The notes beneath the pieces were generated by a model that was not told the DNA's origin, made no database searches, and was given only the letters and a program-made list of their open reading frames with translations. From the NCBI GenBank assembly GCA_021324685.1, contig JAJPIQ010000082.1, positions 1-64,000 on the forward strand: DNA of 64,000 bases. The letters run 5' to 3'. Positions within the stretch are counted from its first letter, which is position 1. Every line of letters begins with the position of its first letter. The position numbers were made by a program, and so were the translations under genes. Shown here piece by piece: positions 13,940-33,315 of this stretch. This DNA is from Bacteroidota bacterium. Its GTDB lineage: Bacteria > Bacteroidota > Ignavibacteria > Palsa-1295.

Positions 13940-14027
13940 TCAAAGAAGCTTCGAAGGTATCGAAACCCCCTCAGCGGAATCAGTATAATCAGCGGAATCC
14001 CGGTTCGAAATCCAAATCTAAAATAGC

Positions 14028-16594: not shown

Positions 16595-17326
16595 ATGATC
16601 CGATCACAACGGGAACTCGCCGAAGTCAGTCGGCCTGGCGCAGAACGGCTCTCGCAGACCGAGAAGCTGCTGCTGCGTTATGAGACCAGCCGCGACTGGG
16701 TGATGAACAACCAGCGCGCGATGGCCGTGATCGCGGTCGTTCTTATCGCTATTGTTGGAGCCCTGTGGTGGTGGGCCGGCCAGCGACAGACCAATGCCGA
16801 ACACGCTTCGACGTATCTGTCCCGGACGATGGGATTTTATTTCAGCGACGATTACCGGCATGCCATCGATGGCGATCGCACCGAGCGTATGGCCGGCGAG
16901 CCGATTTACGGTCTCCGCTATATTGTGGACCAATATGGCTCCACTCCCGCCGGGAACCAGGCGGCGCTCATGCTCGGCAATTGTTACTATGCGCTCGGCA
17001 AATACGACAGTGCCGAGACCGCTTTCGAAAAAGCATCGAGCGATTATCCGATCGTGAAAGCTTCGATCGAAGCGGGACGTGCTGCTATTTTCGAGCATCG
17101 AGGTAACAAAATCGAAGCAGCGAAGTTGTTTGAAACAGCGGCAGGACGAGATAAGCAAAATCCGCTCGATGCGGACTATCTCCTAAGTGCCGCTCGCGAT
17201 TACGAAGGAGCAAAACAAAAGGACGACGCCGTCCGGCTTCTACGTGAGATCGCCGGAGACTATCCGAATACGCAGTTCGATGATGCCGCCAAGCGCGAAC
17301 TGCTGAAGATGGACGTAGAGCTTTGA
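16595..17326 (+). CDS. Single-pass membrane protein with TPR-like repeats (YfgM-like)
   Basis: 243 residues. A cytoplasmic N-terminus of about 40 residues precedes one hydrophobic segment (MAVIAVVLIAIVGALWWWAG, about 46-65). The remainder is helical, with tetratricopeptide-like pairs such as NQAALMLGNCYYALGKYDSAETAFEKA and DADYLLSAARDYEGAKQKDDAVRLLREI. The layout matches YfgM-type or Tol-Pal-associated tetratricopeptide proteins that sit at the inner membrane and hold periplasmic partners. The partner here is unknown. It stands between tRNA-Arg and the T9SS cargo block, so it could assist secretion, but that is inference from position only. Confidence 0.85.
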   Translation: MIRSQRELAEVSRPGAERLSQTEKLLLRYETSRDWVMNNQRAMAVIAVVLIAIVGALWWWAGQRQTNAEHASTYLSRTMGFYFSDDYRHAIDGDRTERMAGEPIYGLRYIVDQYGSTPAGNQAALMLGNCYYALGKYDSAETAFEKASSDYPIVKASIEAGRAAIFEHRGNKIEAAKLFETAAGRDKQNPLDADYLLSAARDYEGAKQKDDAVRLLREIAGDYPNTQFDDAAKRELLKMDVEL

Positions 17327-17499: not shown

Positions 17500-20400
17500 A
17501 TGTACCGTTACTTGACTGCTTTTATTGTGTTCATTGGCCTTGCGACGTTCGCGGGCCAGCTCCAGGCACAACGCCTGATTCCGATTTCGGGGTATCTCCC
17601 GGCGGGTCAGACGAAAGTGTTTCCTCCCCGCACTCCGCAGAACTCTGCGACCGATACGATCTTTGAGATCTCGGGCGATTACCATGTCGCCGGAACGCTC
17701 ATCGTTCAGGAGGGCGCCGAAGTTTGGTTTCTGCCGAACAGCCGTATTATCGATACGGCCGGCGGCAAGATCATCGCCAATGGTTGCGCCGGCTTAAACC
17801 GTCGGATCCTTTTTCGGGGAGCGGGCATCAATGCCAACTCGGTCGAATGGGGCCATTTTATCATTCTTCCAAATTCGGACTCGGCGTACTTCTCGAACGT
17901 CCGATTCACCAATTTCCGTAAACGCAATACGGTCGACGTAACGCTGCTCTACAGCCCGACGGCCGATCCGACGCACGCCGCCTTCAATGCCGCGATTAAT
18001 AATGCGATCAACGGTAATGGCGGTGTGATTTCGACGTTTTCTCAGAAGACATTCATCTATAATGCGATCGTCGACAGCTCGCAGACTTCGTTCCGCGGCG
18101 GCGCGTTCGCATTCCTCCAGGCGCCGGTCGGCTGGCCAGTGCCGGACGATGGCCGTCTCGCGCTCGCGAATCGGCAGGTCGCCAATCTTACAATCCGCGA
18201 CGTTCGCTGCTTCAATCAGGAAACGACCGGAGCGACAGATGTTCTGGCGCTCGGTGGCGCGATCTACATGGCCTCGAACTCCGCGACCTATAATTCGGCC
18301 GATTATGTAGTCGGTTACCTCGGCGGCAGCAACTTCCCCTGCGGTTCACCGGCTCTCGATGTCAACCTCTTCGAGCGTTGCACCGCCAACAATACGTTCG
18401 GCAACCTCGCGACTAATTTTGCCAAAGGCGGCGCGATCTATGTCGGTACGAACACCGGTCTCGTCCTCACGCAGAGCACGTTCAATAACGACTCGGCCAT
18501 CGAGACCGTCACGGCCCCGAACGGCGGGACGCCTGACGTCAACTCCTGGGGTGGTGCAATCGATGTGAGCGCATTCTCCGGAAGCCCGACCGAAGTTCCG
18601 ATCGGTTCCGGCAACTCACAGGTGCCGTATCCCCCGGGACCGTCCGATCGTCTGCCAGGCCTTACTATCTTAAAGACCGCTTTGTTCAACACCTGCGTTG
18701 CAGGCCGCGGCGGTGCGATCGCGCTCGAGTGGAATAACGCGAGCATTCCGGCTCCTCGTCTTAATATCGATGCCGAGCATTTCGCGGCTCCGAGTGGCGG
18801 TGGTGCCCTCGTGCGCGACTCTGGCCTTATCCAGTTCGTCAATAACGTCGCCTATCTTTATGGCGGCGCAATCTATTCGCCGAACCCGGTATTCATCAAA
18901 GGGTATCTTGCTCCGCAAAACTTCCCGTGGCCGGGCGGTGCGGACTCGGTTGAACTCCGCGTCCACTTTGCCAATAACCTTGCGGGTGTTGGCGGCGGCG
19001 GACTCTATCTCGATGGCAATGCCGGCGGCCAGCCGGATTTGATCGAGCGCCGTTCGGTCCATTTCCATGAAATGGTCAATCCGTTCGATACCCGTATTAA
19101 CCCGGCGGGCGGTGTCAACCGCGGTGCACTTTATGGTGCTGGCGTTATCGGAGGCGGTGCCGAGTATATTGGCATGCGCGATTCCGTCTTCGCCGTCGAA
19201 TACAACAGCGATACCGTCGTTGGCGGTAACGGCGGTGCCGTCGAAATTCGCGATGCGATCGCGGCCGGTAATGCGGTACCGAACAACCGATATTTTGTCG
19301 AAAACGAGTATAACCCCCAGAACGTGAGAGTTCCTCGCGATACGTTCGCGAGCGCGAGCATCTTCCCGTTCGACCCACGCGAACTGACCCGCTTCCTTAA
19401 TAACGCGGTTCTCCTCGGACCCGATTCGGCCGCTCTCTTTAATTACAATCCGGCGAATACCGGCTCGGCCCACGGCCGCGGCGGTGCGCTCTATGTAGAA
19501 ATTACGAGCGACCCCAATCAATTGATCGAACCGCTCGATTCTACCTTCTTAAGCCACGTGCGCATGGAAGGTAACTCGGCCTATTCTGGCTCCGCGGTGT
19601 GGTGCGACCGTTACGATTTCAAGTTCATGTCGAACCTGTGCCTGATCGCGAACAATCACGCGACCTCGCCCTCTTCCGCGAACATTGATCTCGATACGGC
19701 GGGCGCTGGTAAGGGTATTTCGAACCCCGGCGATCCGAATGCCGGCGCAACGATCTGGGCTGACTTCGAAGGTCCGCTCCCGTCGTATGAGTCTAACTCG
19801 CGCGGCGATGCGATCTATGATAACACGGCCCGTTACATCCTTCGTCTGCCGGTCTCGACGATCGTTGGCCGAAGCGGTGTCGACACGCTCCGCGGCGACT
19901 TCTGGGGCGAAACCGGACCGCAGATCATCACCCAGATCAATCCCCCGGTCGGCGTCGAACAAGCGACGTTCTTCATCGACTTTTACAAAGGCTGCTTCAC
20001 GAATATTTACGAGCCGAATAGCAATCCGCCGGTGCAATACCATCCGAACGCGATTGGAACGGTTCCCGATACCCTCCTCATGGAAGGCCGCGTCTACGAT
20101 CTCTTCGATCGCGGAACGGATATGAAAGTGGCCGATTACGAACTTCCGCGCCTCGCGCCGGCAGAAGCGTTCTCGCTTGGTCTTCCGAGCGATGTGGCCG
20201 CGCTCCATCGGTTCACGCGTAATTTCTACGATACGAATGCGACCTATGTGAACAAGATCGATCTTATGCAGACCGATTTCGTTGGACCGCACCCGATCGG
20301 ATACCCGCTCTTCCTGCAGGCCGACGTCGCTCTCGCGGATTCCAATCGCGATCCGTATGCGAAGAACTACACGGTCTTCATGGTCTTCAATCAGACCACG

Positions 20401-23400
20401 AACGAATTCGTCCGCGTGAACTTAAAAGAGATCAAGCAGGATGAAGGCGCGGGCGATGTTCAGCAGACCTATCGTGGCCGCCTCGACTTCGTGCCAGATT
20501 CTTCGGTGGCCGAGCGTCATCCGAACCTCCGCCAGCGCGCGCTCTATACCCTTTCGCTTCTTCGTCCCTCGACAATGACGTTCGACGAAGTCCAGCGCGC
20601 CTCCATGCTTGAGGATTCCGCCGCTCTCAACGGTCGTGAATATTCACTTGCGGCTGCGGATCTAGTTGCGGCTGGTGACTCGGTCTTTATGAATTGCGAG
20701 TCGACCGGTGTTCCGGCTAACTCGACCTGGTATGCTGGTGAAAAATACCATACGCTTCCCGTTCGTCCGGGCGATCGCATTCTTGTGATTAGCCGTACGC
20801 AGCTTTGGAAATACGGCGCGGCGTATGCCATCACGCATGGACTACAGTTCACGATCGGCGACGTATTGCCTCCGGCATTCGTGGCCGACATTCCGAACCT
20901 CCAGTCCGACACGTATAATCCGAATGTGCGGTTCGTCCATGAGGATGTGAACTATAACGCCAGCGATGCTGCGCACACGCTCTTCCGCGTGGCGGGATTC
21001 GATGCGAATAACTTCTACGATCCGCGATTCCTCTTTAATGCTGCGAACTATACGCAGCTTGCGTTCACCGTAACGCCGGATCTTCTGACGGGCGATGTCG
21101 TTCCAACCGGTTCTAGTTATGTGGCGAAAAATGCCGCTGACTCGGTCCGTGCGCATGTCCGCCTCAATCACTGGCTGCATGACAGCGTCATCTACAATCA
21201 GAACATCACCGGCTCGAATGGCTATGTGCTGCTCTATGGCCAGCCACACAATCCGGATGTCGTTCCGGGTGGCGAAGGTGTAACGGCAACGGTTACCAAT
21301 TTCCCGCCGAACTTTGCTTCTGAGAGTGGGCTGAGGGGCTCGTTCCCAGGAGTGCTTGGGGCCGACAGCCTTGGACTTAGCATGTGGGTCTACCCGCCGT
21401 TTATGAACTGCGCGCGGATCCCGGATTCGACCACGGCAATTCCGGATACGATCTGCATCCGCTCGACAAGCTCGACCTATCACTTCAAGATCGTCGTCAT
21501 GGATAGCCTTCCGCGATTCCTGCAGACGTCGCTTCCGAAGTGCGGTGCGATCCTGACGGACTCGCTACGCTATACGGTCGACCTGAATACCGACGACGAG
21601 CTCGAGGATTCGGTCGCTGCGGCAGAGACCCTGCCTGGCGCACGGGTCGCCGATTCTGGCAGCCGGTTCCCAGCATGGGACTTCCGTTATGGCCGTACGG
21701 CATATGACTTCCAGACACATCCTTCCTGGATGCTCGAGCCGCAGGGCGGCAATTATGTTCCGATCGACAGCACGGATCCGAACTTCAAGCTTCGTGGCAT
21801 TATCAACGTTCGCGTCGATTCTGCCTACGCGGTGAATAATCTTCTGACTCCGATTCCGCAGGTCAACGGCGAGCTCAACCTCGACACGATCGCGGCGGTC
21901 GAAGCGAACGACGGACATACCGGTAAGGCGCTCCAAAAGTGGGCGGTGCCGATCCTGTTCGTACCGACGATCCTGAACGACACGCTCCCGCGCGCTCGCG
22001 AAGGCGTTGAGTACAGCATGAACTTCCAGTTCCCGGATCGCATCAATCGGATCCTGATCCAGAACCTGAACCCGTCGCAGTACTTTACCTATAAGCTGCT
22101 CTATAAGGGCGATGTCGAATATCTCTATCGCGATATTCCGAATAAAGTAAATGGCGATGTGCCGCCGAAGATCGGTACTCCCGATACCGTTGTAGGCCAT
22201 ACGCCGGCATGGTTGCATATCGATCCGTATTCTGGTGTGCTTACCGGCGTACCGGGCGATACCGATGCTCCGCACGTCGATGGCATGGCTTGCGGTCCGG
22301 ACAGCGTAACGGTTGTTGTTACCGATGGACAGTGCGTTGCGACGTGGAAGACGTTCGCGCTCGATGTCGATTCGGTCAACCACATGCCGATGCTCTCCCG
22401 TGGACCGGCTGAGCCGTGCGTAACCAACGGTACTCAGTACTGCGACAGCGCATATGTTGTCGATCGCGATCTCATGCGTGACTCGTGCGGTAAAGAGACC
22501 CTTACGCTCAGTCTTATCAATATGGATCCGAGCTTCACGGTCACACCAAGTACGGTGAGCGGTCAGCTTTCGAACGATACCGTGCATGTCATGATCTGCG
22601 GTACGTTCAATGAGCCACAGACCTTCTTCCAGAACCCTGGACCGTATGCCGATACCGTTCGCCTCCAGGCGACGGATGCGGCCGGCAACAGCGATACGCT
22701 CGTCTATCCGGTCCACATCGGCGACAAGCCGCGTTTTGAGTGTGCGATCTACGTAATGAACGCGATCACACAGCTTCATCCGCTCCAGGATATCCAGAAA
22801 CTCTGCTTCGGTGCAGGTCAGTATGGGCACGATTCGCTCGACGTTCGCTACTGCGAATATGAAGTCGCGCCGCCGCCGCCCACGAGCGCCTTCGATGCAC
22901 GCTGGATCCTGCCGATCGGCGGAGCACTGGAAGGTACTACCGTCGATGTCCGTAGCGATGTCGTGACGTCGAACCAGTTCGTAACGTGGCAGGTGAAGTT
23001 CCAGCCCGGTAACGAATCCGGTGGCGCTGGCAGTTTGTATCCGATCGAAATTTGCTGGAACCGTTCCTGCCTGAACAGCTCGGCGCTTTCCGGTGTGTTC
23101 GCGACGGGTAACTTCTACCTGCGTAACTCGCAGAACCCGAACGAGTTCGACATCAACATGGCAAGCGGCCAGGCGCAGATCGATAATAGTCTATATACGC
23201 TGACGGCGATCGGTTCGGATTCGGAGTGCCTCCAGATCCGTGACCAGAGCGTTTCGAATGCGCTGATCGTCTTCGTGCCGGCTGGTTCGGGCGTCGGCGA
23301 AGGTGCGCCGAAACCGGAGTTCGCATTGCAGCCGAACTATCCGAACCCGTTTGCGGGTGCGACCACGCTCAACTTCTCGGTTGCTGAAGCTTCCAACGTT

Positions 23401-23604
23401 CGCATCGATATCTACGATGTGAAAGGAACGCTGGTGCGTACACTCGTCAACGAGAAACTCGATGCCGGTTCCTATCCGGTAACGTGGGATGGCACGGACA
23501 ACACCGGTGCGCAGGTCGCTTCCGGAACGTATGTAGCGCACATGACCGCGGGTAGCTTCCAGGCGTCAGTAAAAATGTCAGTCCAGCCGCAGGGAGCACA
23601 GTAA
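17500..23604 (+). CDS. Giant T9SS-secreted beta-helix (Pmp-like) surface protein
   Basis: 2034 residues from the ATG at 17500, chosen for the GGAGG at 17491-17495 and the signal peptide LTAFIVFIGLATFAGQLQAQ; the frame itself opens at 17356. Residues about 30-800 carry repeated GGAIY/GGALY and FxNN motifs (GGAIYMASNSAT, GGAIYVGTNTGL, GGGLYLDGNAGG), like the polymorphic-membrane-protein beta-helix. Around 1492-1600 is a putative Ig/cadherin-like (He_PIG-type) domain, WLHIDPYSGVLTGVPGD. Residues about 1747-1927 hold a Cys-containing module also found in the 27001 gene. The C-terminus from about 1941 is a T9SS sorting domain (LQPNYPNPF, IDIYDVKGTLVRTL). Likely a large surface or matrix protein. 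Confidence 0.92.
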   Translation: MYRYLTAFIVFIGLATFAGQLQAQRLIPISGYLPAGQTKVFPPRTPQNSATDTIFEISGDYHVAGTLIVQEGAEVWFLPNSRIIDTAGGKIIANGCAGLNRRILFRGAGINANSVEWGHFIILPNSDSAYFSNVRFTNFRKRNTVDVTLLYSPTADPTHAAFNAAINNAINGNGGVISTFSQKTFIYNAIVDSSQTSFRGGAFAFLQAPVGWPVPDDGRLALANRQVANLTIRDVRCFNQETTGATDVLALGGAIYMASNSATYNSADYVVGYLGGSNFPCGSPALDVNLFERCTANNTFGNLATNFAKGGAIYVGTNTGLVLTQSTFNNDSAIETVTAPNGGTPDVNSWGGAIDVSAFSGSPTEVPIGSGNSQVPYPPGPSDRLPGLTILKTALFNTCVAGRGGAIALEWNNASIPAPRLNIDAEHFAAPSGGGALVRDSGLIQFVNNVAYLYGGAIYSPNPVFIKGYLAPQNFPWPGGADSVELRVHFANNLAGVGGGGLYLDGNAGGQPDLIERRSVHFHEMVNPFDTRINPAGGVNRGALYGAGVIGGGAEYIGMRDSVFAVEYNSDTVVGGNGGAVEIRDAIAAGNAVPNNRYFVENEYNPQNVRVPRDTFASASIFPFDPRELTRFLNNAVLLGPDSAALFNYNPANTGSAHGRGGALYVEITSDPNQLIEPLDSTFLSHVRMEGNSAYSGSAVWCDRYDFKFMSNLCLIANNHATSPSSANIDLDTAGAGKGISNPGDPNAGATIWADFEGPLPSYESNSRGDAIYDNTARYILRLPVSTIVGRSGVDTLRGDFWGETGPQIITQINPPVGVEQATFFIDFYKGCFTNIYEPNSNPPVQYHPNAIGTVPDTLLMEGRVYDLFDRGTDMKVADYELPRLAPAEAFSLGLPSDVAALHRFTRNFYDTNATYVNKIDLMQTDFVGPHPIGYPLFLQADVALADSNRDPYAKNYTVFMVFNQTTNEFVRVNLKEIKQDEGAGDVQQTYRGRLDFVPDSSVAERHPNLRQRALYTLSLLRPSTMTFDEVQRASMLEDSAALNGREYSLAAADLVAAGDSVFMNCESTGVPANSTWYAGEKYHTLPVRPGDRILVISRTQLWKYGAAYAITHGLQFTIGDVLPPAFVADIPNLQSDTYNPNVRFVHEDVNYNASDAAHTLFRVAGFDANNFYDPRFLFNAANYTQLAFTVTPDLLTGDVVPTGSSYVAKNAADSVRAHVRLNHWLHDSVIYNQNITGSNGYVLLYGQPHNPDVVPGGEGVTATVTNFPPNFASESGLRGSFPGVLGADSLGLSMWVYPPFMNCARIPDSTTAIPDTICIRSTSSTYHFKIVVMDSLPRFLQTSLPKCGAILTDSLRYTVDLNTDDELEDSVAAAETLPGARVADSGSRFPAWDFRYGRTAYDFQTHPSWMLEPQGGNYVPIDSTDPNFKLRGIINVRVDSAYAVNNLLTPIPQVNGELNLDTIAAVEANDGHTGKALQKWAVPILFVPTILNDTLPRAREGVEYSMNFQFPDRINRILIQNLNPSQYFTYKLLYKGDVEYLYRDIPNKVNGDVPPKIGTPDTVVGHTPAWLHIDPYSGVLTGVPGDTDAPHVDGMACGPDSVTVVVTDGQCVATWKTFALDVDSVNHMPMLSRGPAEPCVTNGTQYCDSAYVVDRDLMRDSCGKETLTLSLINMDPSFTVTPSTVSGQLSNDTVHVMICGTFNEPQTFFQNPGPYADTVRLQATDAAGNSDTLVYPVHIGDKPRFECAIYVMNAITQLHPLQDIQKLCFGAGQYGHDSLDVRYCEYEVAPPPPTSAFDARWILPIGGALEGTTVDVRSDVVTSNQFVTWQVKFQPGNESGGAGSLYPIEICWNRSCLNSSALSGVFATGNFYLRNSQNPNEFDINMASGQAQIDNSLYTLTAIGSDSECLQIRDQSVSNALIVFVPAGSGVGEGAPKPEFALQPNYPNPFAGATTLNFSVAEASNVRIDIYDVKGTLVRTLVNEKLDAGSYPVTWDGTDNTGAQVASGTYVAHMTAGSFQASVKMSVQPQGAQ

Positions 23605-23621
23605 TTAGGTGTAACTTTTTG

Positions 23622-23651
23622 GAGCCGCGGAGATTATTTCCTCCGCGGCTC
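23622..23651 (+). other. Perfect 11-bp hairpin between surface-protein genes
   Basis: GAGCCGCGGAG (23622-23632) and CTCCGCGGCTC (23641-23651) form a perfect stem with an 8-nt loop. No T-run follows, so it is not a textbook intrinsic terminator. It could be a weak terminator, an mRNA-end stabiliser or a processing site in a shared transcript. Confidence 0.7.
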
Positions 23652-23718
23652 TGGAAAGAACCTTCGGACACCGCGAATACGAAACAAGTTTAAAACACTT
23701 TCAAGGAGTATCAGACCC

Positions 23719-25632
23719 ATGAAACTTTATCGACGGTTCTTTATTGCGATGGCGGTCGTTGCGATCGGTGCGATGGGCCTCGCAACGAACGCGCACGCAC
23801 AGGCCTCGGGCGTTCAGCCGCTTTGGGCAAACTATGCGGTCTCGTACGTCAACGAGTTCTATAACCCGTTGGCTGGCGGGACGCTGCTTTCGGCCGACCA
23901 ATTCTTCAACTCTTCGGGCACCATCGATCACGACGATGGCACCGCGGCAAATATTCCGACCGGCTTTACGTTCGATTACAACGGCAATGCATCGAACTCG
24001 GTCAATATTAATATCAATGGATGGGTGTCGATTCGCTCGCTCAACCCATCGGCCAATTTCAATCAGATCCCGGTCGTAACCTGGAATAACAACTTCCTCT
24101 TTTCGTCCGAATTGCCGAATAATACGGTAGCACCATATTGGGGCGACCATTATTATCGGTTCCTCGAGCCGGGATATCATCCTTCACGCATTTCGTATTC
24201 GACGACCACGGTGCCCGATCCGAACCCGAACGCAAAGCCGTTCTCGTTCATCCACACCTTCACGGTCGAGTGGCGCGACCTGAATGTTAACGACAAGACG
24301 AATCCGAATTCCATCGCTTCGTTCCAGCTTATCATCCGCGAAAATCCGATGGCGAACGATCAGTCCGCCCCGGACGATCGCGCGACCATCGAATACGCAT
24401 ACGGCCCGATCGGCAGTGGTAATGTCCAAACGGCCGGCGATGCAGTCGGTGCCGAAGATTCTGTCGGATTCACGCACATCAATGCGATGTACACGACCGC
24501 ACAGTTCAATGGTGATTCCACTCGGTTGAACACTTCGACCCGCACGACCATATGGCCGCCTTCGGGTCTGCCGGGCCGTGCAATCTATCTCATCCCGCAG
24601 GGCCGCGCGTTCCTTTCGCAGTGGGGCGATGGCGATGCCGATCTTTCCCAGATTTATAGCTCGGACGTTAATGTCCGCACGCATCAGAACCGCTTTGTCA
24701 CGCTTAACGATGCGGAACTTGTTCTTACCGCCGCGGCGACGGACGTTCCACTCGATTCGGTCGAAGGCAGAAATGCGTTCCACGGTGATGCTAACCATAA
24801 CGGCCGGGTTTATAACCCAACCTATGGCGCCTACTTCTACTATACAACGCCATACGATGCCGCGTACATCCTGATGTACTTAGCGGGCAAACTCGCGGTG
24901 CTTCCGTGGCCACTTCCGCTTCCGGTTCCCGGATACAAGGCGGCCGATATTCATACGACCGACGTCTCGGGTATCGTTGCGGACGCTTCGAACGTTCAGG
25001 TAACGGGTAATACGGTTCTCGTGCCGATCACGGTACGCGGTACGGTCAATGGCGCACTTTCGATCCAGATGGATCTTAAGGGCCTCGAGAATTCCGGTCT
25101 CCAGTTCGTTGGAACCCGTTCCCCGCAGGGAACGCTCATGGCCTCGAACGGCTCTACCGGGCGCGTCGTGCTTGCCACGAGCGGCAACTACTCCGATGGT
25201 GCGACCGTCGGCTACATCGAACTGCGCCAGACCTCCGGAACGAATGCGGAGTTCGATCTTGCGAATGTAAAAGTGAACGATGCCGATCTTCCCTCCTCGC
25301 ATGTCGCGCTCAAGCTTACGAGTGCGGATGGTAGCAGCGCGGGAAGTTCGCTCGAACAAAATATGCCGAATCCGTTTGTCGTTAACGCCGGTGGCGAAAC
25401 GACGATCGGCTTTAATCTGGCCGCGCCGGAGGATGTGACGCTTCGCGTTTATGACATGCTCGGCCATGAAGTTCGTACCCTGGTCAGTGGCGAAGGTCGC
25501 GCCGCCGGACATAACACCACCGAGTGGGATGGCCGCGATGCGAGTGGCAACGTTGTTGCCAGCGGACTTTATTACTATCAGCTTGTGACCCCAGACTTCA
25601 CGCAGACCGTGAAGATGCAGGTCATTCGCTGA
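23719..25632 (+). CDS. T9SS-secreted protein with dockerin-like and cohesin-like modules
   Basis: 637 residues; AAGGAG at 23703-23708 supports the ATG at 23719. The signal peptide ends NAHAQ. The N-terminal 270 residues include a beta-rich domain with DDGTAANIPTGFTFDYNG. At about 303-400 are two degenerate dockerin-type repeats: a FVTLNDAELVL helix, then the calcium-loop-like GDANHNGRV followed by YDAAYILMYLAGKL. Residues about 411-535 resemble a cohesin-like beta-sandwich (VLVPITVRGTVNGALSIQMD). The C-terminus is a T9SS domain (LEQNMPNPF, LRVYDMLGHEVRTLVSGEG). Having both module types suggests non-covalent assembly with neighbours such as the 25688 product; this is untested inference. Confidence 0.9.
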   Translation: MKLYRRFFIAMAVVAIGAMGLATNAHAQASGVQPLWANYAVSYVNEFYNPLAGGTLLSADQFFNSSGTIDHDDGTAANIPTGFTFDYNGNASNSVNININGWVSIRSLNPSANFNQIPVVTWNNNFLFSSELPNNTVAPYWGDHYYRFLEPGYHPSRISYSTTTVPDPNPNAKPFSFIHTFTVEWRDLNVNDKTNPNSIASFQLIIRENPMANDQSAPDDRATIEYAYGPIGSGNVQTAGDAVGAEDSVGFTHINAMYTTAQFNGDSTRLNTSTRTTIWPPSGLPGRAIYLIPQGRAFLSQWGDGDADLSQIYSSDVNVRTHQNRFVTLNDAELVLTAAATDVPLDSVEGRNAFHGDANHNGRVYNPTYGAYFYYTTPYDAAYILMYLAGKLAVLPWPLPLPVPGYKAADIHTTDVSGIVADASNVQVTGNTVLVPITVRGTVNGALSIQMDLKGLENSGLQFVGTRSPQGTLMASNGSTGRVVLATSGNYSDGATVGYIELRQTSGTNAEFDLANVKVNDADLPSSHVALKLTSADGSSAGSSLEQNMPNPFVVNAGGETTIGFNLAAPEDVTLRVYDMLGHEVRTLVSGEGRAAGHNTTEWDGRDASGNVVASGLYYYQLVTPDFTQTVKMQVIR

Positions 25633-25644
25633 TCCTGGGTATTT

Positions 25645-25670
25645 CGCGCCTCGCGTTCGAGCGGGGCGCG
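25645..25670 (+). other. GC-rich hairpin between surface-protein genes
   Basis: CGCGCCTCGC (25645-25654) pairs with GCGGGGCGCG (25661-25670), ten pairs with one G.T wobble and a 6-nt loop. No T-run follows. Position and type match the hairpin at 23622. Confidence 0.6.
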
Positions 25671-25687
25671 TCGTTCATTGAAAAAGT

Positions 25688-26887
25688 ATGGCTATGAAAA
25701 AGCTGCTTCTCTTAGTGGCTTTCCAGTTCGTCGCGTGTTTGGCGGCACAAGCGCAAAGCCTGTTCGAGGTTCGCTTCGATACGGTCACGGCTAAAGCCGG
25801 AGATACCGTTACAGTTTATGCGCGGTACCGTTTTACACCTTCCGGACCACACGACATCATGTCCTACACGGCGCAATTCGACTTCGATACGACCGAAGTC
25901 CATCTGCTCGCGTATGTATTCGATGGAACGGCGACTCCGGCTGCAGATACGAACCTTGCTGGCACCAGCCACCGCGGTATCAGCGCTTTCGGAACATCCG
26001 AGATCGACTTAAGCGATTCGCTTTTATTTGGGATCCGTTTTCGAGTCGATCGGGCGCTCGCCGATACGGCCTTTGTGCGATGGGATACAACCGTTCCCAT
26101 GTTCGCATCGGGAACCGGCGTCGATTCGGTCCATTTCCAGAATGGATGGGTCCGAACGATTTCGACCTCGGGACATGTGGTGCTTGGCACTCCGGCCGTG
26201 GTCGTGCGAGGGTTTACACTCGGCTACAGCCCTGATTCTGTCGCGTTCGAGCTGCCGGTACTTGCTTCGGGCCTTGATAGCGCGAATATTCGCACGGCAG
26301 TCATAAGCTTTGTTTACGACAGCACGGCACTTTCGATCCAGGGCTTTAATGCGACTCCGGTGAAGGACGTAAATGTCGTTGGGTTTTCGAGCGTAGCGCT
26401 TCCCGGCGGCCTTCGACGCGAGAGCGTTTCGATCGCTTCTTCCGGAAGCGGACCGATTCCCGGTAACGACACGCTCCTGCGAATTTCTTTCGTCGGACTC
26501 GTGGGGCTCGATACGAACTGCACCGCGCTCGAGGAAGTCTCGCTTCGGCCGTCGAATCCTGGCGGGCTTATCGGCAATACTGATTACACGGCGAATCCGA
26601 TCTGCCTCGAAGGAGAACGACCGAGCCGCGTTTCGAATGCGAAGCAGGGAAATCCGATTTCACTTTTTCCGAACCCGGCCGTAAGCGAAGTAACATTCGT
26701 TTTTCCGGCTGGTACCGAAGGACAAAAAATGCTGGAAGTTTACGATGCGCTTGGACGTATGGTCTGGAGCGGCGCGATAGCAGGAGCGAGGTGGACGATT
26801 CCCGTCGGAATACCGGCTGGTTCGTATACCGCAGAAGTGAACGCGAGTGGAACGATCTTCAGAACGAATCTTACGATCGCTCCATAG
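25688..26887 (+). CDS. T9SS-secreted protein with two cohesin-like domains
   Basis: 399 residues (ATG at 25688, or 25694 two codons later). Signal peptide KKLLLLVAFQFVACLAAQAQ. Two beta-sandwich segments follow, about 22-150 (FDTVTAKAGDTVTVYARYRF ...) and 165-300 (GYSPDSVAFELPV ...), each with the pattern of cohesin-like domains: a V/A-G-D-T-V start and an AQFDFDTTEVHLL or ISFVYDSTALSIQG strand. The end is a T9SS sorting domain (ISLFPNPAVSEVTF, LEVYDALGRMVW). It is a candidate partner for the dockerin-like module of the preceding gene. The last 97 bp overlap a non-native N-terminal extension of the next frame. Confidence 0.85.
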   Translation: MAMKKLLLLVAFQFVACLAAQAQSLFEVRFDTVTAKAGDTVTVYARYRFTPSGPHDIMSYTAQFDFDTTEVHLLAYVFDGTATPAADTNLAGTSHRGISAFGTSEIDLSDSLLFGIRFRVDRALADTAFVRWDTTVPMFASGTGVDSVHFQNGWVRTISTSGHVVLGTPAVVVRGFTLGYSPDSVAFELPVLASGLDSANIRTAVISFVYDSTALSIQGFNATPVKDVNVVGFSSVALPGGLRRESVSIASSGSGPIPGNDTLLRISFVGLVGLDTNCTALEEVSLRPSNPGGLIGNTDYTANPICLEGERPSRVSNAKQGNPISLFPNPAVSEVTFVFPAGTEGQKMLEVYDALGRMVWSGAIAGARWTIPVGIPAGSYTAEVNASGTIFRTNLTIAP

Positions 26888-27000
26888 CCATACAAAAAAG
26901 TTTTTTTATCATCCATCGAGGGTGTAACAAAGTGTTTGAAAACGAATTATTGTCAGGTATGATGACCCCTTACAATTTTATAACTAAGGAGAACAAGGCC

Positions 27001-29937
27001 ATGCGCAAGCTATACGGCTCATGGGCGGCGGTTCTCGCCGTTCTGGTGCTCGTGTGCGGAATCACGCCAGTCCGCAGTCAGACGTTGAAGGCGTATCCCA
27101 CTCTCTCGCTCCGGAATTTCAAATGTCCGGGTCTGCAGGGTGACACGATCGAGCGTGTCCCGGCTCCGGGTCCGGGTGGAGATCGGTACTTTCTGGTACC
27201 GGTGTATTGCTATAATGAAGTCGATACGAACTTCAACCCGAACAACAATGGCACCATCCAGGGCCAGCACCTCGAGCCGATCCGGAGCTTTAATTTCCAG
27301 TTCTGGTACGTGACGCAGGCGATGGTGCTCGATACGGGCCACGGTTCGCCGATCGTCCTTGCTACGCCAACCGATACGGCGATGGCGAAGACGTTCTTCG
27401 TCCAGTTCAGCGATCAATCGGCAAACAATCCGAATAATCCGTTCCAGCACGTGATCCGGATTTCGGGCGCCGGCTCGGTCCCGCTTCCGATCAACTCCTC
27501 GACCTATTGCCTATGCAAGAACGCGGTCCTTATGTGGCTCCGCTTCAAGGTCGTTCCGAGCAACGTAACGAGCGGTTTGCTGCACCTGGACTCCGCGACC
27601 TTTAACGATCATAGCGGCGATTTCTTTGTACAATCTCCAACCGGTATTCCCTCCTACACCGAAGGTAACTTTGGTGGCGGCTTGCCGAGCCCGAGTGGCG
27701 GCGGCGATGTCGGTTGCCCGTACAACGGACCGTTCGATCGCGGTTATGGCGAAGTCGATGTCACGGCTCAGCCGACCTTCCTCCTGCGCCCATTCTCTCA
27801 GATCTATGAGATCAATGGCCCAGGCAGTGCAAACGACTCGCTCTTAGTCGATCTCGTGTACGATCCGACGGTCTCGTCCGGTTCGGTCTCGCGTAATCTT
27901 CAGTTGAGTGACGCCGTCGGCAATACCGTGATCCAGAATATTACGATCTCTTCCGACCAACAGTGGCTGCAGATCAGTGCGACGGGCCCATCCGGTGGCT
28001 CCGACTCGATTACTTCGCCCAGCGGGTTCCCTGATATTAACTACGCCACGAGCTTCGGTTCTTCGGTGCAGAATGTTTTCTTAAACGTTCCTAATCCGTC
28101 CAGCCTTGCGCCGGGTGTTTACTATGCAACGGTAACGTTCACCAGCTACGGCACTTCGAACAGCCCGCTTACGCTGCATGTACGCTTCGTTCGCCTTGCA
28201 TCGCCGAACGAACCGCAGCCCGGTGGGTCCGGAACAGGTATTCGCCTGAACATCACGAATAGCTGCGTACCGACCTGCACCAATATCGTGACCTTTGGAA
28301 CAGGCCCCGGAGCGACGTCCGGTATTGACGTCCTCTATGGCGAACAACGCGTGACCGTCGAGGACACGCTCGGCGCCGATACGAACGGTACGTGTATCGC
28401 TTATTTCGTTCCGCTCGATAACACCGTCGATACGGCGTTCCAAAACCCCGATTTCATCGGTATGACCCGCGATATTCGTTCCGATAAAACGGATACGACG
28501 CTTATCTACCAGGTTGATTTCAATCCGGGTAACGTGAACTGCTATCCGGTGAAAGTCTGCGTCGATCCGCACGACTTCCCGAATGGCGCTCGTATCGTCA
28601 TGAAGTTTACACTCAACGGTTCCGAGCAAGGCATTGACTTGCGTAATGCAACAGTTGACGTCAACGGTATGGAGTGCGTCACGATCACGGACCACCGGAT
28701 CAACCACTTCTATATCGAGTATACGCCGGCTACGATCGCGAATCTTGGGACGTTCCTGAAGCTCAATAGCTGGACTCTCATTTCGCTCCCGGTTGTTCCG
28801 CCGAATCCGAATGCGACTGTTATTTTCCCTCATGCGGCAACGCCTCCGTTCCAGTACACGTCGCAGAGCGGTTGGGTGCAGCCGCCGGGCAATAACCTTG
28901 AGTTCGGCCGCGGCTATATGATCCGCTATGGCGACTTTATCGGACCCGATATCACGGTTGCCGGGATTAAGTCTTATTCGATCACCAATGTTGCGGTCTC
29001 GCAAGGTTGGAACTCTATTGGCGGCACGAGCGGCACCGGTACATTCAATGGTTCGGATGGTACGGTCATGCTCTTCACGCCTCCTGCGAATGGCGCTCCA
29101 GTGCCGATCGCTCAGACGGACGCACTCTGGGAGTTCACGCCGCAACGCGGGTACGATCAGACCAATTTCTTCACACCGGGCGAAGGATATTTCATCAAAG
29201 TCAGTGCAACTGGGTTTTATAACCTGAATACACCGGCACCAAAAGTGGGAGTAACGCATGCCTCGCAGAACCCGGCCGGTAAGATCGCCGAGATCGGAAA
29301 TTTGCAAGGCCAGCTTGCGCACGTCCTCGTCCGCGATGCTGCGGATAACGGCCAGACGCTTTACTTCGGCCATGCGACGACGTCGATGCCGGAAGCCAGC
29401 TTCGAAATGCCGGTGCTCTTCCACGATTTCGATGCTCGCTTTGAAGCCAACAGCGGCATGATGAGCTATAATCACTCGTCGTATACCGTCGATCTCCATG
29501 CGGCGAACTTCCCGCTCACGATGACCTTCACGAACCTTTCGGGTACCGTCGAAGTCACCGATATGAACGGTAAAGTTCTCGGCACGGCGACGAATAACGG
29601 CATCGTGACGATCTCGGATGCGACCGTTAAGCAGGTCCGCATTGCCGAGAAAGAAGACAATGTCGGTGCGAATGTACTCGGCTACGCGATTACCGCTACC
29701 GAGAACCCATTCCACGAGACTTCGACGATCCAGTACACGGTTCCGCAGGAATCGGTCGTTACGCTCGTCGTCTATAATGCGCTCGGCCAGGTCGTCTCGA
29801 CGCTCGTGAGCGGCACGGTCGGAGCAGGACAGCATGAGGCGCTCTTCGATGGCACGAACCTGCCGTCAGGCACTTACTACTGCACGATGAAGGCTGGCAA
29901 TTTTGTCCAGACCCAGTCGCTCAGCCTCGAACGGTAA
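27001..29937 (+). CDS. T9SS-secreted multidomain surface protein
   Basis: 978 residues. I chose the ATG at 27001 because AAGGAG precedes it by about 10 bp and a signal peptide follows (AAVLAVLVLVCGITPVRSQ); the frame opens 70 codons earlier inside the previous gene. Residues about 300-400 look BACON-like (SSDQQWLQIS ... PGVYYATVTFTS). About 413-579 is a Cys-containing module shared with the 17500 protein (FGTGPGATSGIDVLYGE, RDIRSDKTD, VDFNPGN, YPVKVC, MECVTITD). Next comes a region common in T9SS cargo (NSWTLISLPVVPP, FGRGYMIRYG). A T9SS domain ends it (ATENPFHETSTIQY, LVVYNALGQVVSTLVSG). Possible promoter upstream: TTTG at 26935-26938 and TA at 26959. Confidence 0.9.
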   Translation: MRKLYGSWAAVLAVLVLVCGITPVRSQTLKAYPTLSLRNFKCPGLQGDTIERVPAPGPGGDRYFLVPVYCYNEVDTNFNPNNNGTIQGQHLEPIRSFNFQFWYVTQAMVLDTGHGSPIVLATPTDTAMAKTFFVQFSDQSANNPNNPFQHVIRISGAGSVPLPINSSTYCLCKNAVLMWLRFKVVPSNVTSGLLHLDSATFNDHSGDFFVQSPTGIPSYTEGNFGGGLPSPSGGGDVGCPYNGPFDRGYGEVDVTAQPTFLLRPFSQIYEINGPGSANDSLLVDLVYDPTVSSGSVSRNLQLSDAVGNTVIQNITISSDQQWLQISATGPSGGSDSITSPSGFPDINYATSFGSSVQNVFLNVPNPSSLAPGVYYATVTFTSYGTSNSPLTLHVRFVRLASPNEPQPGGSGTGIRLNITNSCVPTCTNIVTFGTGPGATSGIDVLYGEQRVTVEDTLGADTNGTCIAYFVPLDNTVDTAFQNPDFIGMTRDIRSDKTDTTLIYQVDFNPGNVNCYPVKVCVDPHDFPNGARIVMKFTLNGSEQGIDLRNATVDVNGMECVTITDHRINHFYIEYTPATIANLGTFLKLNSWTLISLPVVPPNPNATVIFPHAATPPFQYTSQSGWVQPPGNNLEFGRGYMIRYGDFIGPDITVAGIKSYSITNVAVSQGWNSIGGTSGTGTFNGSDGTVMLFTPPANGAPVPIAQTDALWEFTPQRGYDQTNFFTPGEGYFIKVSATGFYNLNTPAPKVGVTHASQNPAGKIAEIGNLQGQLAHVLVRDAADNGQTLYFGHATTSMPEASFEMPVLFHDFDARFEANSGMMSYNHSSYTVDLHAANFPLTMTFTNLSGTVEVTDMNGKVLGTATNNGIVTISDATVKQVRIAEKEDNVGANVLGYAITATENPFHETSTIQYTVPQESVVTLVVYNALGQVVSTLVSGTVGAGQHEALFDGTNLPSGTYYCTMKAGNFVQTQSLSLER

Positions 29938-29949
29938 ACCTTTTCCAAT

Positions 29950-29973
29950 CCCCTCCTTGATCATAAGGAGGGG
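29950..29973 (+). other. 9-bp hairpin downstream of the 27001 gene
   Basis: CCCCTCCTT (29950-29958) pairs perfectly with AAGGAGGGG (29965-29973) over a 6-nt loop. No T-run follows; a stronger terminator lies 64 bp further on. Confidence 0.6.
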
Positions 29974-30036
29974 GCCGGAAGCATGAGCGATCATGCGAGT
30001 GGTCTTGTAACAAACGGCCACGACAGGAGTTATTCG

Positions 30037-30080
30037 GAGCGGGAGTTGCTTATACCAAGCAGCTCCCGCTCTTTGGTTTT
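30037..30080 (+). terminator. Intrinsic terminator closing the 27001 transcript
   Basis: A 15-bp stem with one wobble pairs 30037-30051 with 30057-30071 (GAGCGGGAG on one side, CTCCCGCTC on the other) over a 5-nt loop. TTTGGTTTTT follows. The strong stem and T-rich tail make it the clearest terminator in the surface-protein block. Confidence 0.85.
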
Positions 30081-30105
30081 TAACTCAACAATTTTTTGTG
30101 AAGCG

Positions 30106-30978
30106 ATGAAGCTTTTTAATGCAATGAAGCGGTATCCGATCCTTGGTGTAGTGGTTGTGTGCGGTGTCGCGGTTTTTGTGCCTCGGACGCGAGCACAGTC
30201 GCTGATACCGGAGTTCCGGTTGGACCTGCACTACCACGACGCCGGAAACGGCGGGAACGGTTACCCTGTCGCGTTCGGCTACGATGCCCGAGCGACCGAT
30301 GGGATCGATACAGCCTTCGGCGAAGCGTATTATCCGCCCGTAGTGGGACCGGGGGGCTTTTATCTGGCGTTCCAAATATCGGACACGGAAGCATCGCTCA
30401 TCGATATCATGTACAAGCCGGGGACCGACACCTTTACGATCCAATACCCACTCGTCCTTTCAGCATTCGAATACCCTGCTACGCTCTCCTGGGACCGATA
30501 CCAAATTCCTTCCCAGATCAAGGCGATTACGATCGCACCGCCCGGCAATCATACAAGATTGATGGCGGATATGACCAAGCAGGACTCCGTTGTCATTACG
30601 ACCGACCTCAGCAGTCCCGATTATGCGTTGAACTGGATGCCCGCGATCATCACGGTGTATTATAATTTTGCCCCGGCAGCGGTGGAGAACGATTTTACGG
30701 CCGACGCAGGATTAATCTCGAAGGCATCGGTCTATCCAAATCCAATGGTCTCGAACAGCGTGCTCGATCTTACAATGAACGATGCAGCGCTCGTTACGAT
30801 AGAGGCGTATGATGTCACGGGCCGCGAGCTAATGTATATCTCGAGGAATGTCGGTCCCGGAGATGCGGTGATGGGCTTAAACACGCTTCCTAAGTCGAGT
30901 GGCGCAGTGCTCTTACGAATCGATGCCAGTTCCTCGTCCCGGCATGAGACGCGTACCGTCATGGCCATGCGGGAATAA
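30106..30978 (+). CDS. Secreted protein with T9SS sorting domain
   Basis: 290 residues from the ATG at 30106 (the frame opens at 29983 inside the terminator region, so the internal start is preferred; 30124 is an alternative). Signal peptide YPILGVVVVCGVAVFVPRTRAQ. The first about 190 residues form a beta-rich region with no recognised family. The C-terminus is a T9SS-like sorting domain (KASVYPNPMVSNSVLDL, VTIEAYDVTGRELMYIS). Its start follows the terminator by only about 25 bp, leaving little room for a separate promoter. Its stop (TAA 30976-30978) abuts the stop of the convergent next gene with no gap. Confidence 0.82.
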   Translation: MKLFNAMKRYPILGVVVVCGVAVFVPRTRAQSLIPEFRLDLHYHDAGNGGNGYPVAFGYDARATDGIDTAFGEAYYPPVVGPGGFYLAFQISDTEASLIDIMYKPGTDTFTIQYPLVLSAFEYPATLSWDRYQIPSQIKAITIAPPGNHTRLMADMTKQDSVVITTDLSSPDYALNWMPAIITVYYNFAPAAVENDFTADAGLISKASVYPNPMVSNSVLDLTMNDAALVTIEAYDVTGRELMYISRNVGPGDAVMGLNTLPKSSGAVLLRIDASSSSRHETRTVMAMRE

Positions 30979-33315
30979 TTACTCGCCGATCACGATCTTT
31001 CCGGACCAGACCTGATCGCCGCTTACGAGGTGATAAAAATATATATCTCTCGCAAGAAGCGAGGTCGGAATAACCTGATTATTTCCATTGACGAAAGCAT
31101 GGAGGACCGGCGCACCTAAAATATTCAGGAGGGTGAAGCGGGCAGTGGGATTCAAGTCGGAGTGGAGAGCAATGCGAATACCGTCCGATTCGGGCAAAAT
31201 ACTTAAAGTGTTGTTCTTCAATGCCATCACACCATCCGTAGCATATCCCTTTCCCTGAAGCTGTACCGTTCGGGTTCCCGCGGAAGTCGAACGGACATGA
31301 AACGTCCCGGAATACGTCATGCTTGCTACGGGCGAGAACGTAATATGGAGCGTGTCCGACGTGAATGAGTTAAGCGTGATGGGTAGCGCATCCATGCCGT
31401 CTCTAAACGCAGGATTATCGCTCCAGATGGAGTCGAACGTGATGGGCCAGGCCGAGGAAGTGTCGTTCAGAACGATCGAGGCAATAGTTTTACTGGTGCC
31501 CACCTGAACGGTATCAAAGTTCGTTGCGGACATTGTAAAACCCGGTTTCAGTGTGGTGCTGGGAACAGAATAGGAAATTTCTCCCACACTTCGATTCCCC
31601 GTCATGTCGTACGCCGTAAAACGCGCGAATGCAGCTTTGCTGGCATCTGCCAGGCAGGCCGTGAGCGTCGTCGAACTCGTGCTATCGCCAGGAATGAAAG
31701 TGGGGTCACCGGAAATCGTGAGGTTCACAAGGGAGTCGATCTCGATATAGGAAATCCCCGAGCCAGCGTCCGAAATCGTAACTTTGTCGCAGCCATTTGT
31801 TTCATTCCAGGAAAGGACCGGCGGGATTTGGTCGTTTCCGGCGGCTGCGAGAAGTCCCGGTGAAGCAGGATACGTAATGCTCTGGCCGGTATGCGTTGCA
31901 TACGCGTAGGCATAAGCGCCGACCGGCAGATCGGATTCGATTCGGTGACTGCCGGGCTGGACGGCACCTATAGGATTGCGATAGACCGTGTATTCTCCGG
32001 AGATCGGTTTCTTTGTCCAGTTCCCAATGCTTGCACCGTCGAAGGTGACCGACTTCGCATTCGCATTCACGATAATGTTTACGTACGGAGCGAATTGGGT
32101 AGTGAACGATGCATTATACAGTGGGACTTGAATGGTCGCTGAGTTCCCAAAGAGTTCTGCCGGTGTAAGTACCGCCATGGCCGGCGAGCCCGACGTCCCC
32201 GTCTCCTGCGATGGATAATCGGCCCCGTTCATATATTGCGTAAGCAGGAAGGGTGCCGAGCTGTACCACTTTGCCGGACCCGAAATGTCGGAAGCGGAGC
32301 TTAAATCGAATGCATGGTCCAGCGTGCAGAACGCATGATCGCCGGTTTGATCGACGATATTGATCGTCTGCCCCGCCTGACTGCCGATGACGACGAATGT
32401 GCTCGCATCGTGATCGGTAATGCCTGGTGCCTGAAAAAATGGCACTGAATAATAGGTTCTTCCCCAGGAGCGGATCGGGGGGACCATATCGGCGACAAAA
32501 TCGTATTTCGCGTAGGTCGCAGGGATTTGTGCGCGCTGGCAGCCGCCGATCACCGCGATCGGGTAATTCGAGTGCAGGACCGTCCCGGTCACATCGTAAT
32601 CGGTGGGATTTTGCGGGATGACCGTCTTATATTGCACAGACTGGCCCTTATTCAGCGATTCGGTAAATGTTTGTCCTTTGGGATGCGCGACGGCGCTCGG
32701 GTTCGGCGCACTTTCAGTTTCTTCGCGAAGGTCGGCGCTCGGTGTGATCGTCACGAGGGTACTGTCGTGCTCCGCCACGATCGTAAACAGGGAGGGATAA
32801 TCGAATTCGTCCGAGCTTGAGCCATAAAAATAGGCTTCGTACCCGGCCACGATATAATCCCTGCCAAGCTGAAAATCGGGCAGTAAATGGATTCCATCTC
32901 CGGCGCTATCGGCGGTCTGGATTTCTGTGAGCATCAGGTCGAGATCCGCGGAGTCGGACCATACATGATAACCTTTGTCCTCCACAATGCCACTTGTTTT
33001 GATGACCTGCGTAAGCGGCAGTGCATAGGCTGCCGTTTTGCCGGCCTGTACCGAAACCGACGCATCGAAGTTCGCGACATGAATATGGGCAATCGTGTTT
33101 TTGGGGGACGTAATATTTAGCTCGTAATAGGTCGCTGCCGTGCTCTGGCCGAAGAGTTCGGGTGGCGCAAACCAAACGCTGCGGCCCATGACCGCTGAAG
33201 AATCGTGCGGAAAGTAAAAAGCCGTGTCATGGAATAATGACTGAGCGGCTGCACCAGATGTAAACATAGCAAGGAAGGTGAGCACCACGAGAGAACGGGC
33301 ACGCTGTGGGATCAT
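30979..33315 (-). CDS. T9SS-secreted protein with IgGFc-binding-type domain
   Basis: 778 residues; signal peptide LVVLTFLAMFTSGAAAQ. Residues about 25-490 match the layout of the IgGFc-binding N-terminal domain family found in mucin-like and bacterial surface proteins: VWFAPPELFG, FVADMVPPIRSWGRTYYSVP, DASTFVVIGSQAGQTI, PVGAYAYAYATHTG. A beta-sandwich with DSIWSDNPAF and TLHITFSPVASMTYSGTF follows, resembling an ASPM/SPD-2/Hydin-type (choice-of-anchor D) repeat. The final about 75 residues are a divergent T9SS sorting domain (ARFTLLNILGAPVLHAF, ARDIYFYHLVSGDQVWSGK). Bacterial members are adhesion-associated; Fc binding is not implied. Confidence 0.85.
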   Translation of the reverse strand: MIPQRARSLVVLTFLAMFTSGAAAQSLFHDTAFYFPHDSSAVMGRSVWFAPPELFGQSTAATYYELNITSPKNTIAHIHVANFDASVSVQAGKTAAYALPLTQVIKTSGIVEDKGYHVWSDSADLDLMLTEIQTADSAGDGIHLLPDFQLGRDYIVAGYEAYFYGSSSDEFDYPSLFTIVAEHDSTLVTITPSADLREETESAPNPSAVAHPKGQTFTESLNKGQSVQYKTVIPQNPTDYDVTGTVLHSNYPIAVIGGCQRAQIPATYAKYDFVADMVPPIRSWGRTYYSVPFFQAPGITDHDASTFVVIGSQAGQTINIVDQTGDHAFCTLDHAFDLSSASDISGPAKWYSSAPFLLTQYMNGADYPSQETGTSGSPAMAVLTPAELFGNSATIQVPLYNASFTTQFAPYVNIIVNANAKSVTFDGASIGNWTKKPISGEYTVYRNPIGAVQPGSHRIESDLPVGAYAYAYATHTGQSITYPASPGLLAAAGNDQIPPVLSWNETNGCDKVTISDAGSGISYIEIDSLVNLTISGDPTFIPGDSTSSTTLTACLADASKAAFARFTAYDMTGNRSVGEISYSVPSTTLKPGFTMSATNFDTVQVGTSKTIASIVLNDTSSAWPITFDSIWSDNPAFRDGMDALPITLNSFTSDTLHITFSPVASMTYSGTFHVRSTSAGTRTVQLQGKGYATDGVMALKNNTLSILPESDGIRIALHSDLNPTARFTLLNILGAPVLHAFVNGNNQVIPTSLLARDIYFYHLVSGDQVWSGKIVIGE

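What the first reader, a model, noticed from the sequence alone, without database searches (positions are those of the whole stretch)
17500..33315. Sixteen-kilobase block of T9SS cargo
Six consecutive genes carry T9SS sorting domains: five rightward (17500 to 30978) and one convergent. They include a 2034-residue Pmp-like beta-helix, a dockerin-like plus cohesin-like protein, a two-cohesin-like protein and an IgGFc-binding-type protein. Adjacent cohesin-like and dockerin-like modules suggest an extracellular complex assembled on the cell surface.
Basis: partly seen in the sequence, partly recalled or inferred. Interest (0 to 1): 0.55.

Follow-up and report, generated by a model that had tools for sequence, protein, structure and literature searches.

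The report
Conserved five-gene surface-protein secretion cassette
Five neighbouring genes for proteins exported to the cell surface stay together in the same order across at least eleven families of a little-studied bacterial class, which suggests that their products build one undescribed surface structure.

Summary
In this genome the sorting domain is common (150 loci), so the clustering alone is only mildly unusual. The stronger result is evolutionary. The five rightward genes (P1 to P5, 17500-30978) keep one order in 36 of 40 genomes examined locus by locus; 3 of the other 4 are contig breaks. A single-pass TPR gene lies upstream wherever upstream sequence exists (34 of 34 loci). Full-length P1 and P4 cores occur only in 11 families of one class. 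They are adjacent in 85 of 95 genomes, on separate contigs in the other 10. The convergent IgGFc gene is a genus-level neighbour, not part of the unit. The P1 and P4 cores give no structural relative and almost nothing in Pfam. The dockerin reading of P2 holds by profile comparison, but dockerin-cohesin-CTD is a common one-chain tail of T9SS cargo in this class, so it does not show that P2 and P3 pair. Most likely: a lineage-specific, T9SS-exported five-protein surface assembly. Physical complex formation is inferred, not shown.

The parts
16595..17326 (+). TPR: single-pass membrane TPR protein, 243 aa, conserved upstream partner
   Evidence: TPR families and weak TPR_21 (YfgM-like) match; upstream of P1 in 34 of 34 loci that have sequence there
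17500..23604 (+). P1 (P0001): giant secreted protein, 2034 aa from ATG 17500; GG-motif beta-helix-like N-terminal part, orphan conserved core, T9SS CTD
19777..23289 (+). P1 conserved core (residues 760-1930 of the 2034)
   Evidence: alignment A9; full-length hits only in 11 families of the class; no Pfam family except weak He_PIG, no solved relative
22804..23271 (+). module shared by P1, P4 and P5, approximate limits
   Evidence: hhalign P1-P4 98.7%, P1-P5 95.2%
23338..23586 (+). P1 T9SS C-terminal sorting domain
   Evidence: TIGR04183 33.9 bits; 26.4 for the whole protein
23719..25632 (+). P2 (P0002): NIDO-like, divergent dockerin, cohesin-like, CTD; 637 aa
23896..24603 (+). P2 NIDO-like region
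   Evidence: Pfam NIDO in 6 of 19 orthologs; below cut-off in P0002 itself
24604..24918 (+). P2 divergent dockerin with insertions in both loops
   Evidence: hhalign 95.2% to 25 class dockerins; D306, D331, D357, D380 in 40 of 40; Pfam Dockerin_1 0 of 19
24916..25353 (+). P2 cohesin-like beta domain
   Evidence: hhalign 91.1% to the mid domain of class dockerin-cohesin tails; Pfam Cohesin 0 of 19
25366..25617 (+). P2 T9SS C-terminal sorting domain
   Evidence: TIGR04183 30.8 bits
25688..26887 (+). P3 (P0003): cohesin-like protein, 399 aa, CTD at 26663-26866
   Evidence: Pfam Cohesin 4.4e-7, 8 of 20 orthologs; second domain 91.9% to class tail mid domain, first domain 7.8%
27001..29937 (+). P4 (P0004): secreted protein, orphan conserved core 27085-29637, CTD 29704-29916
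   Evidence: no Pfam family in 19 orthologs, no solved relative
28237..28764 (+). module shared with P1 and P5, approximate limits in P4
   Evidence: hhalign P4-P5 96.7%, P1-P4 98.7%
30036..30072 (+). terminator-like hairpin between P4 and the likely start of P5
   Evidence: 16-pair stem, longest of 18 sites found; number found equals shuffle mean 17.6
30124..30978 (+). P5 (P0005): the shared module plus a weak T9SS CTD
   Evidence: orthologs start at the matching Met; TIGR04183 21.8 bits, just below cut-off 23

Best explanation
The five rightward genes are one inherited unit: a lineage-specific set of five proteins that leave the cell through Sec and the type IX secretion system and are attached at the cell surface by their C-terminal sorting domains. 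There they most likely build a single surface assembly: P1, a long beta-helix-like arm on a conserved 1,200-residue core, is the main body; P4 and P5 share a module with the P1 base and are probably co-structural parts; P2 and P3 are smaller accessory proteins with dockerin- and cohesin-like beta domains that could serve as contacts. The upstream TPR membrane protein may help these proteins through the inner membrane or periplasm. Shown: sorting domains, leaders, a T9SS component in the genome, gene order, co-occurrence, vertical inheritance, shared module. Inferred: a physical complex, its shape, the roles of single proteins, the chaperone role of the TPR protein.
For: Order P1-P2-P3-P4-P5 in 36 of 40 genomes read locus by locus, with contig breaks in 3 of the other 4. 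In the 20 loci that did not help build the P3 and P5 profiles, P3 is found in 20 of 20 and P5 in 18 of 20. P1 and P4 cores adjacent, same strand, 3.5-6.2 kb apart in 85 of 95 genomes, on different contigs in 10. Restricted to the same 11 families. In one order, 101 of 123 genomes have P1, 89 of 101 good-quality ones; the listed misses include 10 genomes of one family, f22. Downstream neighbours change between families: IgGFc gene, xseA, AhpC/TSA, V/A-type ATPase subunit, glycosyltransferase, oxidoreductase. Families are monophyletic in trees of P1, P2, P4 and TPR, and distances correlate (P1-P4 r=0.968, P1-P2 0.922). SprA_N is present in the genome (3.5e-24). P1, P4 and P5 share a module.
Against: No interaction, expression or structure data. 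Both structure models failed. Distance correlations also arise from shared ancestry alone. A strong terminator-like hairpin separates P4 from P5, and gaps of 55-190 bp between genes allow internal promoters, so a single transcript is not established. P3 and P5 are poorly conserved (13-17% and 15-22% identity in the more distant families), which is unusual for tight interface partners. One family of the same order (f22) lacks P1, and one genome (G209) shows P1-P4 without a detected P5.
Confidence: 0.5

Rival explanations
1. Five separately acting surface proteins kept together only for co-regulated expression and export; no physical complex.
For: All five have their own leader and sorting domain. 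P3 and P5 diverge fast. A hairpin separates P4 and P5. T9SS cargo is abundant in this genome.
Against: The gene order, not only the gene content, is kept over 11 families while flanks change. P1, P4 and P5 share a module. P1, P2 and P4 co-occur with few exceptions.
Confidence: 0.27
2. One reading: a cohesin-dockerin scaffold in which the dockerin of P2 binds the cohesin-like domains of P3, cellulosome fashion.
For: P2 has a divergent dockerin with conserved loop acids. P3 matches Pfam Cohesin in 8 of 20 orthologs. Their genes are adjacent.
Against: P2's dockerin-cohesin-CTD tail is homologous to one-chain tails of unrelated T9SS cargo of the class, so its likely partner is its own neighbour domain or none. 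No other dockerin in the genome. No enzyme domain in any of the five. Long insertions interrupt both loops.
Confidence: 0.1
3. Gene order is kept by generally slow rearrangement, and the cluster has no special coherence.
For: Trees show vertical inheritance. Within family f1, genes upstream of the TPR gene are kept too.
Against: Downstream flanks differ between families while the five genes stay together down to about 26-30% identity.
Confidence: 0.08

Closest known systems
T9SS type A cargo (TIGR04183 / Por_Secre_tail / FlgD_ig C-terminal domains)
   Same: Sec leader plus C-terminal sorting domain; SprA_N in the genome
   Different: Usually known as single enzymes or adhesins; here five cargo genes form a fixed cassette whose main bodies are orphan families
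Dockerin-cohesin modules (cellulosome type)
   Same: P2 has a divergent dockerin pair; P3 matches Pfam Cohesin
   Different: Dockerin and cohesin-like domain lie in one chain before a sorting domain; loops carry insertions; no enzymes and no further dockerins
Chlamydial polymorphic membrane proteins (Pmp) and other beta-helix adhesins
   Same: GGAI-type repeats in the N-terminal third of P1
   Different: Pfam Chlam_PMP below cut-off; P1 ends in a T9SS sorting domain, not in an autotransporter barrel; a 1,200-residue orphan core lies between
YfgM-type TPR_21 proteins (for the upstream gene)
   Same: N-terminal membrane segment followed by TPRs; weak TPR_21 match (20.3 bits against 25.5)
   Different: Below cut-off; the link to Sec is recalled from E. 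coli and untested here

Membership tests
T9SS type A cargo | C-terminal sorting domain over the curated cut-off | tested here: met
   TIGR04183 over cut-off in 5 of 6; P0005 21.8 against 23
T9SS type A cargo | N-terminal Sec leader | tested here: met
   hydrophobic leader ending A/S before Q in all six, by eye; no signal-peptide predictor was run
T9SS type A cargo | T9SS machinery in the genome | tested here: met
   SprA_N 3.5e-24 in G000; other components not searched
T9SS type A cargo | export and cleavage of the sorting domain | not testable with these tools
   needs proteomics
Dockerin type I (P2) | match to the Pfam model | tested here: not met
   0 of 19 members even at E up to 10; no match in the whole genome
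Dockerin type I (P2) | duplicated EF-hand-like repeat with loop acids | tested here: met
   both repeats aligned to 25 class dockerins, 95.2%; D306, D331, D357, D380 in 40 of 40
Cohesin (P3) | match to the Pfam model over cut-off | tested here: met
   P0003 30.6 bits against 24.1; only 8 of 20 orthologs match at 0.01
Cohesin (P2 400-545) | match to the Pfam model | tested here: not met
   0 of 19; profile link 91.1% to tails of which 9 of 10 match Cohesin
Cellulosome-like scaffold | several dockerin-bearing enzymes in the genome | tested here: not met
   0 Dockerin_1 matches in G000; no enzyme domains in the cluster
Cellulosome-like scaffold | cohesin-dockerin binding | not testable with these tools
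   structure models failed
Chlamydial Pmp | Pmp repeats over cut-off and C-terminal autotransporter barrel | tested here: not met
   Chlam_PMP 11.6 bits against 20.6; no barrel family, sorting domain instead

The most novel reading that the evidence does not exclude
The five proteins are the parts of an undescribed extracellular organelle or coat (for example a surface layer or fibre with P1 as its repeating arm) that marks this lineage, exported as a set by T9SS with help of a dedicated TPR membrane protein and locked by dockerin- and cohesin-like contacts.
Probability: 0.3. Interest if true: 0.78.

Novelty: new variant of a known kind. Interest (0 to 1): 0.5.

Why it matters
A set of large orphan secreted proteins kept in one order across at least two orders, also in genomes of about 1.8-2.0 Mb (family f64), marks a core envelope function in a class with few cultured members. 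It gives a ready list of five proteins to localise, image and delete. It also shows that dockerin and cohesin labels in T9SS cargo of this class usually belong to one common C-terminal tail, which warns against reading cellulosome-like networks into such genomes. If the five do form one structure, T9SS would be shown to build multi-protein surface assemblies as well as to export single enzymes and adhesins.

Tried and rejected
Clustering of sorting domains as the evidence: rejected as weak (uniform null P 0.058, 0.46 and 0.078 in three settings; the null ignores gene lengths and contig ends, and only 150 of 199 first-look candidates were scored).

Structure prediction: P0002 and P0003 were folded as single sequences and gave pLDDT 33 and 36, so no fold search was made.

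P0006 as part of the unit: rejected; homologs at that place only in the same genus.

Relation of the two P3 domains to each other: not detectable (1.7%); P3 domains to the P2 cohesin-like domain 0.1% each. An intermediate result that I do not interpret: P4 core against the class tail mid domain 45.5%.

First look at gene order with a longest-ORF rule wrongly showed P4 and P5 missing in G148 because a long ORF on the other strand hid them; corrected by six-frame profile search. In one search the line for L040 is flagged out of order because the P4 profile hit the shared module inside P1; P4 of that genome lies on another contig.

First dockerin extraction used only plus-strand loci and 5 sequences; redone with all 25.

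Profiles of P2 segments, P1 core and P4 core against solved structures: no convincing relative. The search for related loci with P0003 gave one irrelevant CTD match.

Literature: nine searches. Only search listings were seen, plus passages of PMC3534657 and PMC10408702; no listed title or abstract start describes this cluster. The library is open-access only.
Full report
WHAT WAS CLAIMED AND WHAT IS THERE. The six genes exist as described. Sorting domains are confirmed by TIGR04183 in five of six; P0005 falls just short (21.8 against 23 bits). Pfam's two models are over their cut-offs in only three of six. P0006 is an IgGFc_binding protein (5e-48). P0001 has 12 GG-type motifs before residue 670 but does not pass the Pmp model. 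P0003 passes Pfam Cohesin. The start codons of P0004 and P0005 are probably 27001 and 30124, judged from where orthologs begin.

HOW UNUSUAL IS THE BLOCK IN ITS OWN GENOME. The genome (3.47 Mb, 89 contigs) has 150 TIGR04183 hits, itself a lower bound (150 of 199 candidates scored). The block is the densest stretch in that list, but a uniform null reaches 5 hits in 8 kb in 5.8% of trials and 6 in 16 kb in 7.8%. So the co-location alone would not carry the claim.

GENE ORDER IN RELATIVES. Searching P0002 and P0003 in 60 relatives showed that their best matches are neighbours there too. Fetching 40 loci from 39 other genomes and scanning all six frames with profiles of the CTD-free parts gave P1-P2-P3-P4-P5 in this order, on one strand and one contig, in 36 of 40 genomes, the window included. 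The four others: G012 (contig ends in P4), G002 (contig break in P2), G271 (contig ends in P3), G209 (no P5 found). Loci were chosen for strong P2 matches, so presence of P2 is by selection; order and the presence of the other genes are not. The profiles of P1 to P5 were built from the window and the first 20 loci, which match by construction; in the 20 later loci P3 was found in 20 (E 1e-36 to 3e-4) and P5 in 18. A TPR membrane protein stands upstream of P1 in 34 of 34 loci that have sequence there.

DISTRIBUTION. The NIDO-plus-dockerin part of P2 was searched in 395 genomes across the phylum; near-full-length matches occurred only within the same class. In 391 genomes of the class, strong matches of the P1 core were found in 97 genomes and of the P4 core in 100, both in 95 (counted), all in families f1, f4, f7, f14, f15, f18, f23, f25, f63, f64 and f65. 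In 85 of the 95 the two cores are on one contig and strand with 3,483-6,218 bp between them; in 10 they are on different contigs. Other families match only the shared C-terminal modules. In the order that holds most of these families, 101 of 123 genomes have P1, and 89 of 101 of those at least 90% complete and at most 5% contaminated. Of the 22 without, 20 are listed: ten belong to family f22; five (G656, G178, G624, G677, G683) have P4, so P1 is probably in an assembly gap; five (G692, G700, G701, G705, G706) are fragmented genomes of 82-92% completeness. Families f1 and f4 are not in that order, so the cluster spans at least two orders.

INHERITANCE. In trees of P1, P2, P4 (37-40 sequences) and TPR (30), every family with two or more members is monophyletic and f1 groups with f4; pairwise distances correlate (P1-P4 0.968, P1-P2 0.922, P2-P4 0.915, TPR with the others 0.78-0.86). 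This is the pattern of vertical inheritance. It does not by itself prove interaction.

FLANKS. Downstream of P5 lies an IgGFc gene in the same genus, xseA in f1 genera g2 and g3, an AhpC/TSA protein in f4 (L044), a V/A-type ATPase subunit in f15 (L043), a glycosyltransferase in f14 and f18 (L077, L061, L066) and an oxidoreductase in f7 (L078). The five genes therefore stay together while their surroundings change. No genome-wide control for synteny was run.

WHAT THE PROTEINS ARE. P1: variable N-terminal beta-helix-like part and a core of about 1,200 residues with many invariant positions; the only recurring Pfam match in the core is He_PIG, 12 of 19. P4: core of about 850 residues with no Pfam match in 19 members. 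Neither finds a solved structure. P1, P4 and P5 share a module (98.7, 95.2 and 96.7% by hhalign); P5 is little more than this module and a weak sorting domain. P2: NIDO-like part (6 of 19 match Pfam NIDO), divergent dockerin, cohesin-like domain, CTD. P3: cohesin-like; its first domain passes Pfam but does not match the class tails by hhalign (7.8%), its second does the reverse (91.9%), so each rests on one method.

DOCKERIN AND COHESIN. Pfam Dockerin_1 finds nothing in P2 (0 of 19 at E up to 10) nor in the whole genome. Yet against 25 dockerins from the same class the P2 segment aligns over both repeats with 95.2% (E 2.8e-8), while four unrelated alignments score at most 0.3%. The loop acids D306, D331, D357 and D380 are present in 40 of 40 P2 sequences, with insertions between loop positions. 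P2 296-637 as a whole aligns to the tails that follow these dockerins (E 1.3e-38, much of it from the CTD; the cohesin-like part alone 91.1%, E 1e-6), and 9 of 10 such tails match Pfam Cohesin. So dockerin-cohesin-CTD is a common one-chain tail of T9SS cargo in this class, and P2 is a divergent example.

MECHANISM. Most likely the five proteins are exported by Sec and T9SS, anchored by their sorting domains and form one surface assembly with P1 as the main body. Export signals and machinery (SprA_N) are shown by sequence; everything about the assembly is inferred. The TPR protein resembles YfgM-type proteins (TPR_21 below cut-off); a role in export is a guess from recalled E. coli work. Against a single transcript stands a 16-pair terminator-like hairpin at 30036-30072.

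IDENTITY OF THE ORGANISM. A Bacteroidota-type lineage near Kapaibacteriia or Ignavibacteria is my impression from gene content and T9SS; no call establishes it. The Q after the leader fits the Bacteroidetes Q-rule (PMC5837995, abstract start seen).

VERDICT. The finding is a conserved, undescribed surface-protein cassette. No description of it appeared in nine literature searches, of which only listings and passages of two papers were seen.

Noticed in passing
L080-L104 (dockerin loci): A dockerin-cohesin-CTD tail in one chain is common in T9SS cargo of the class; 9 of 10 tails scanned match Dockerin_1, Cohesin and a sorting domain together.
   Followed up: partly
window 30979-33315 and L032 1-4877: IgGFc_binding-type T9SS cargo next to the cluster only in the same genus; G005 has two tandem copies.
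   Followed up: partly
G668 C1:2079764-2089780 and 2125076-2135030: Two copies of the P1/P4 cluster in opposite orientation about 36 kb apart in one genome.
   Followed up: no
family f22: At least ten genomes of one family inside the order lack P1: a natural contrast group.
   Followed up: no
L050, L068, L075, L078 (family f7): P2 is about 920 aa with the NIDO-like part in two tandem copies.
   Followed up: no
G007 C2:320721-321599: A separate paralog of the P2 NIDO-like part outside the cluster.
   Followed up: no
window 10580-12655 (-): Another T9SS cargo protein with sortilin/Vps10 and BNR repeats, next to a VWA protein at 12714-13943.
   Followed up: no
window 30036-30072: Strong terminator-like hairpin between P4 and P5.
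   Followed up: no
window 43917-43958 and 48187-48254: Two short tandem repeat arrays of about 20-base units.
   Followed up: no
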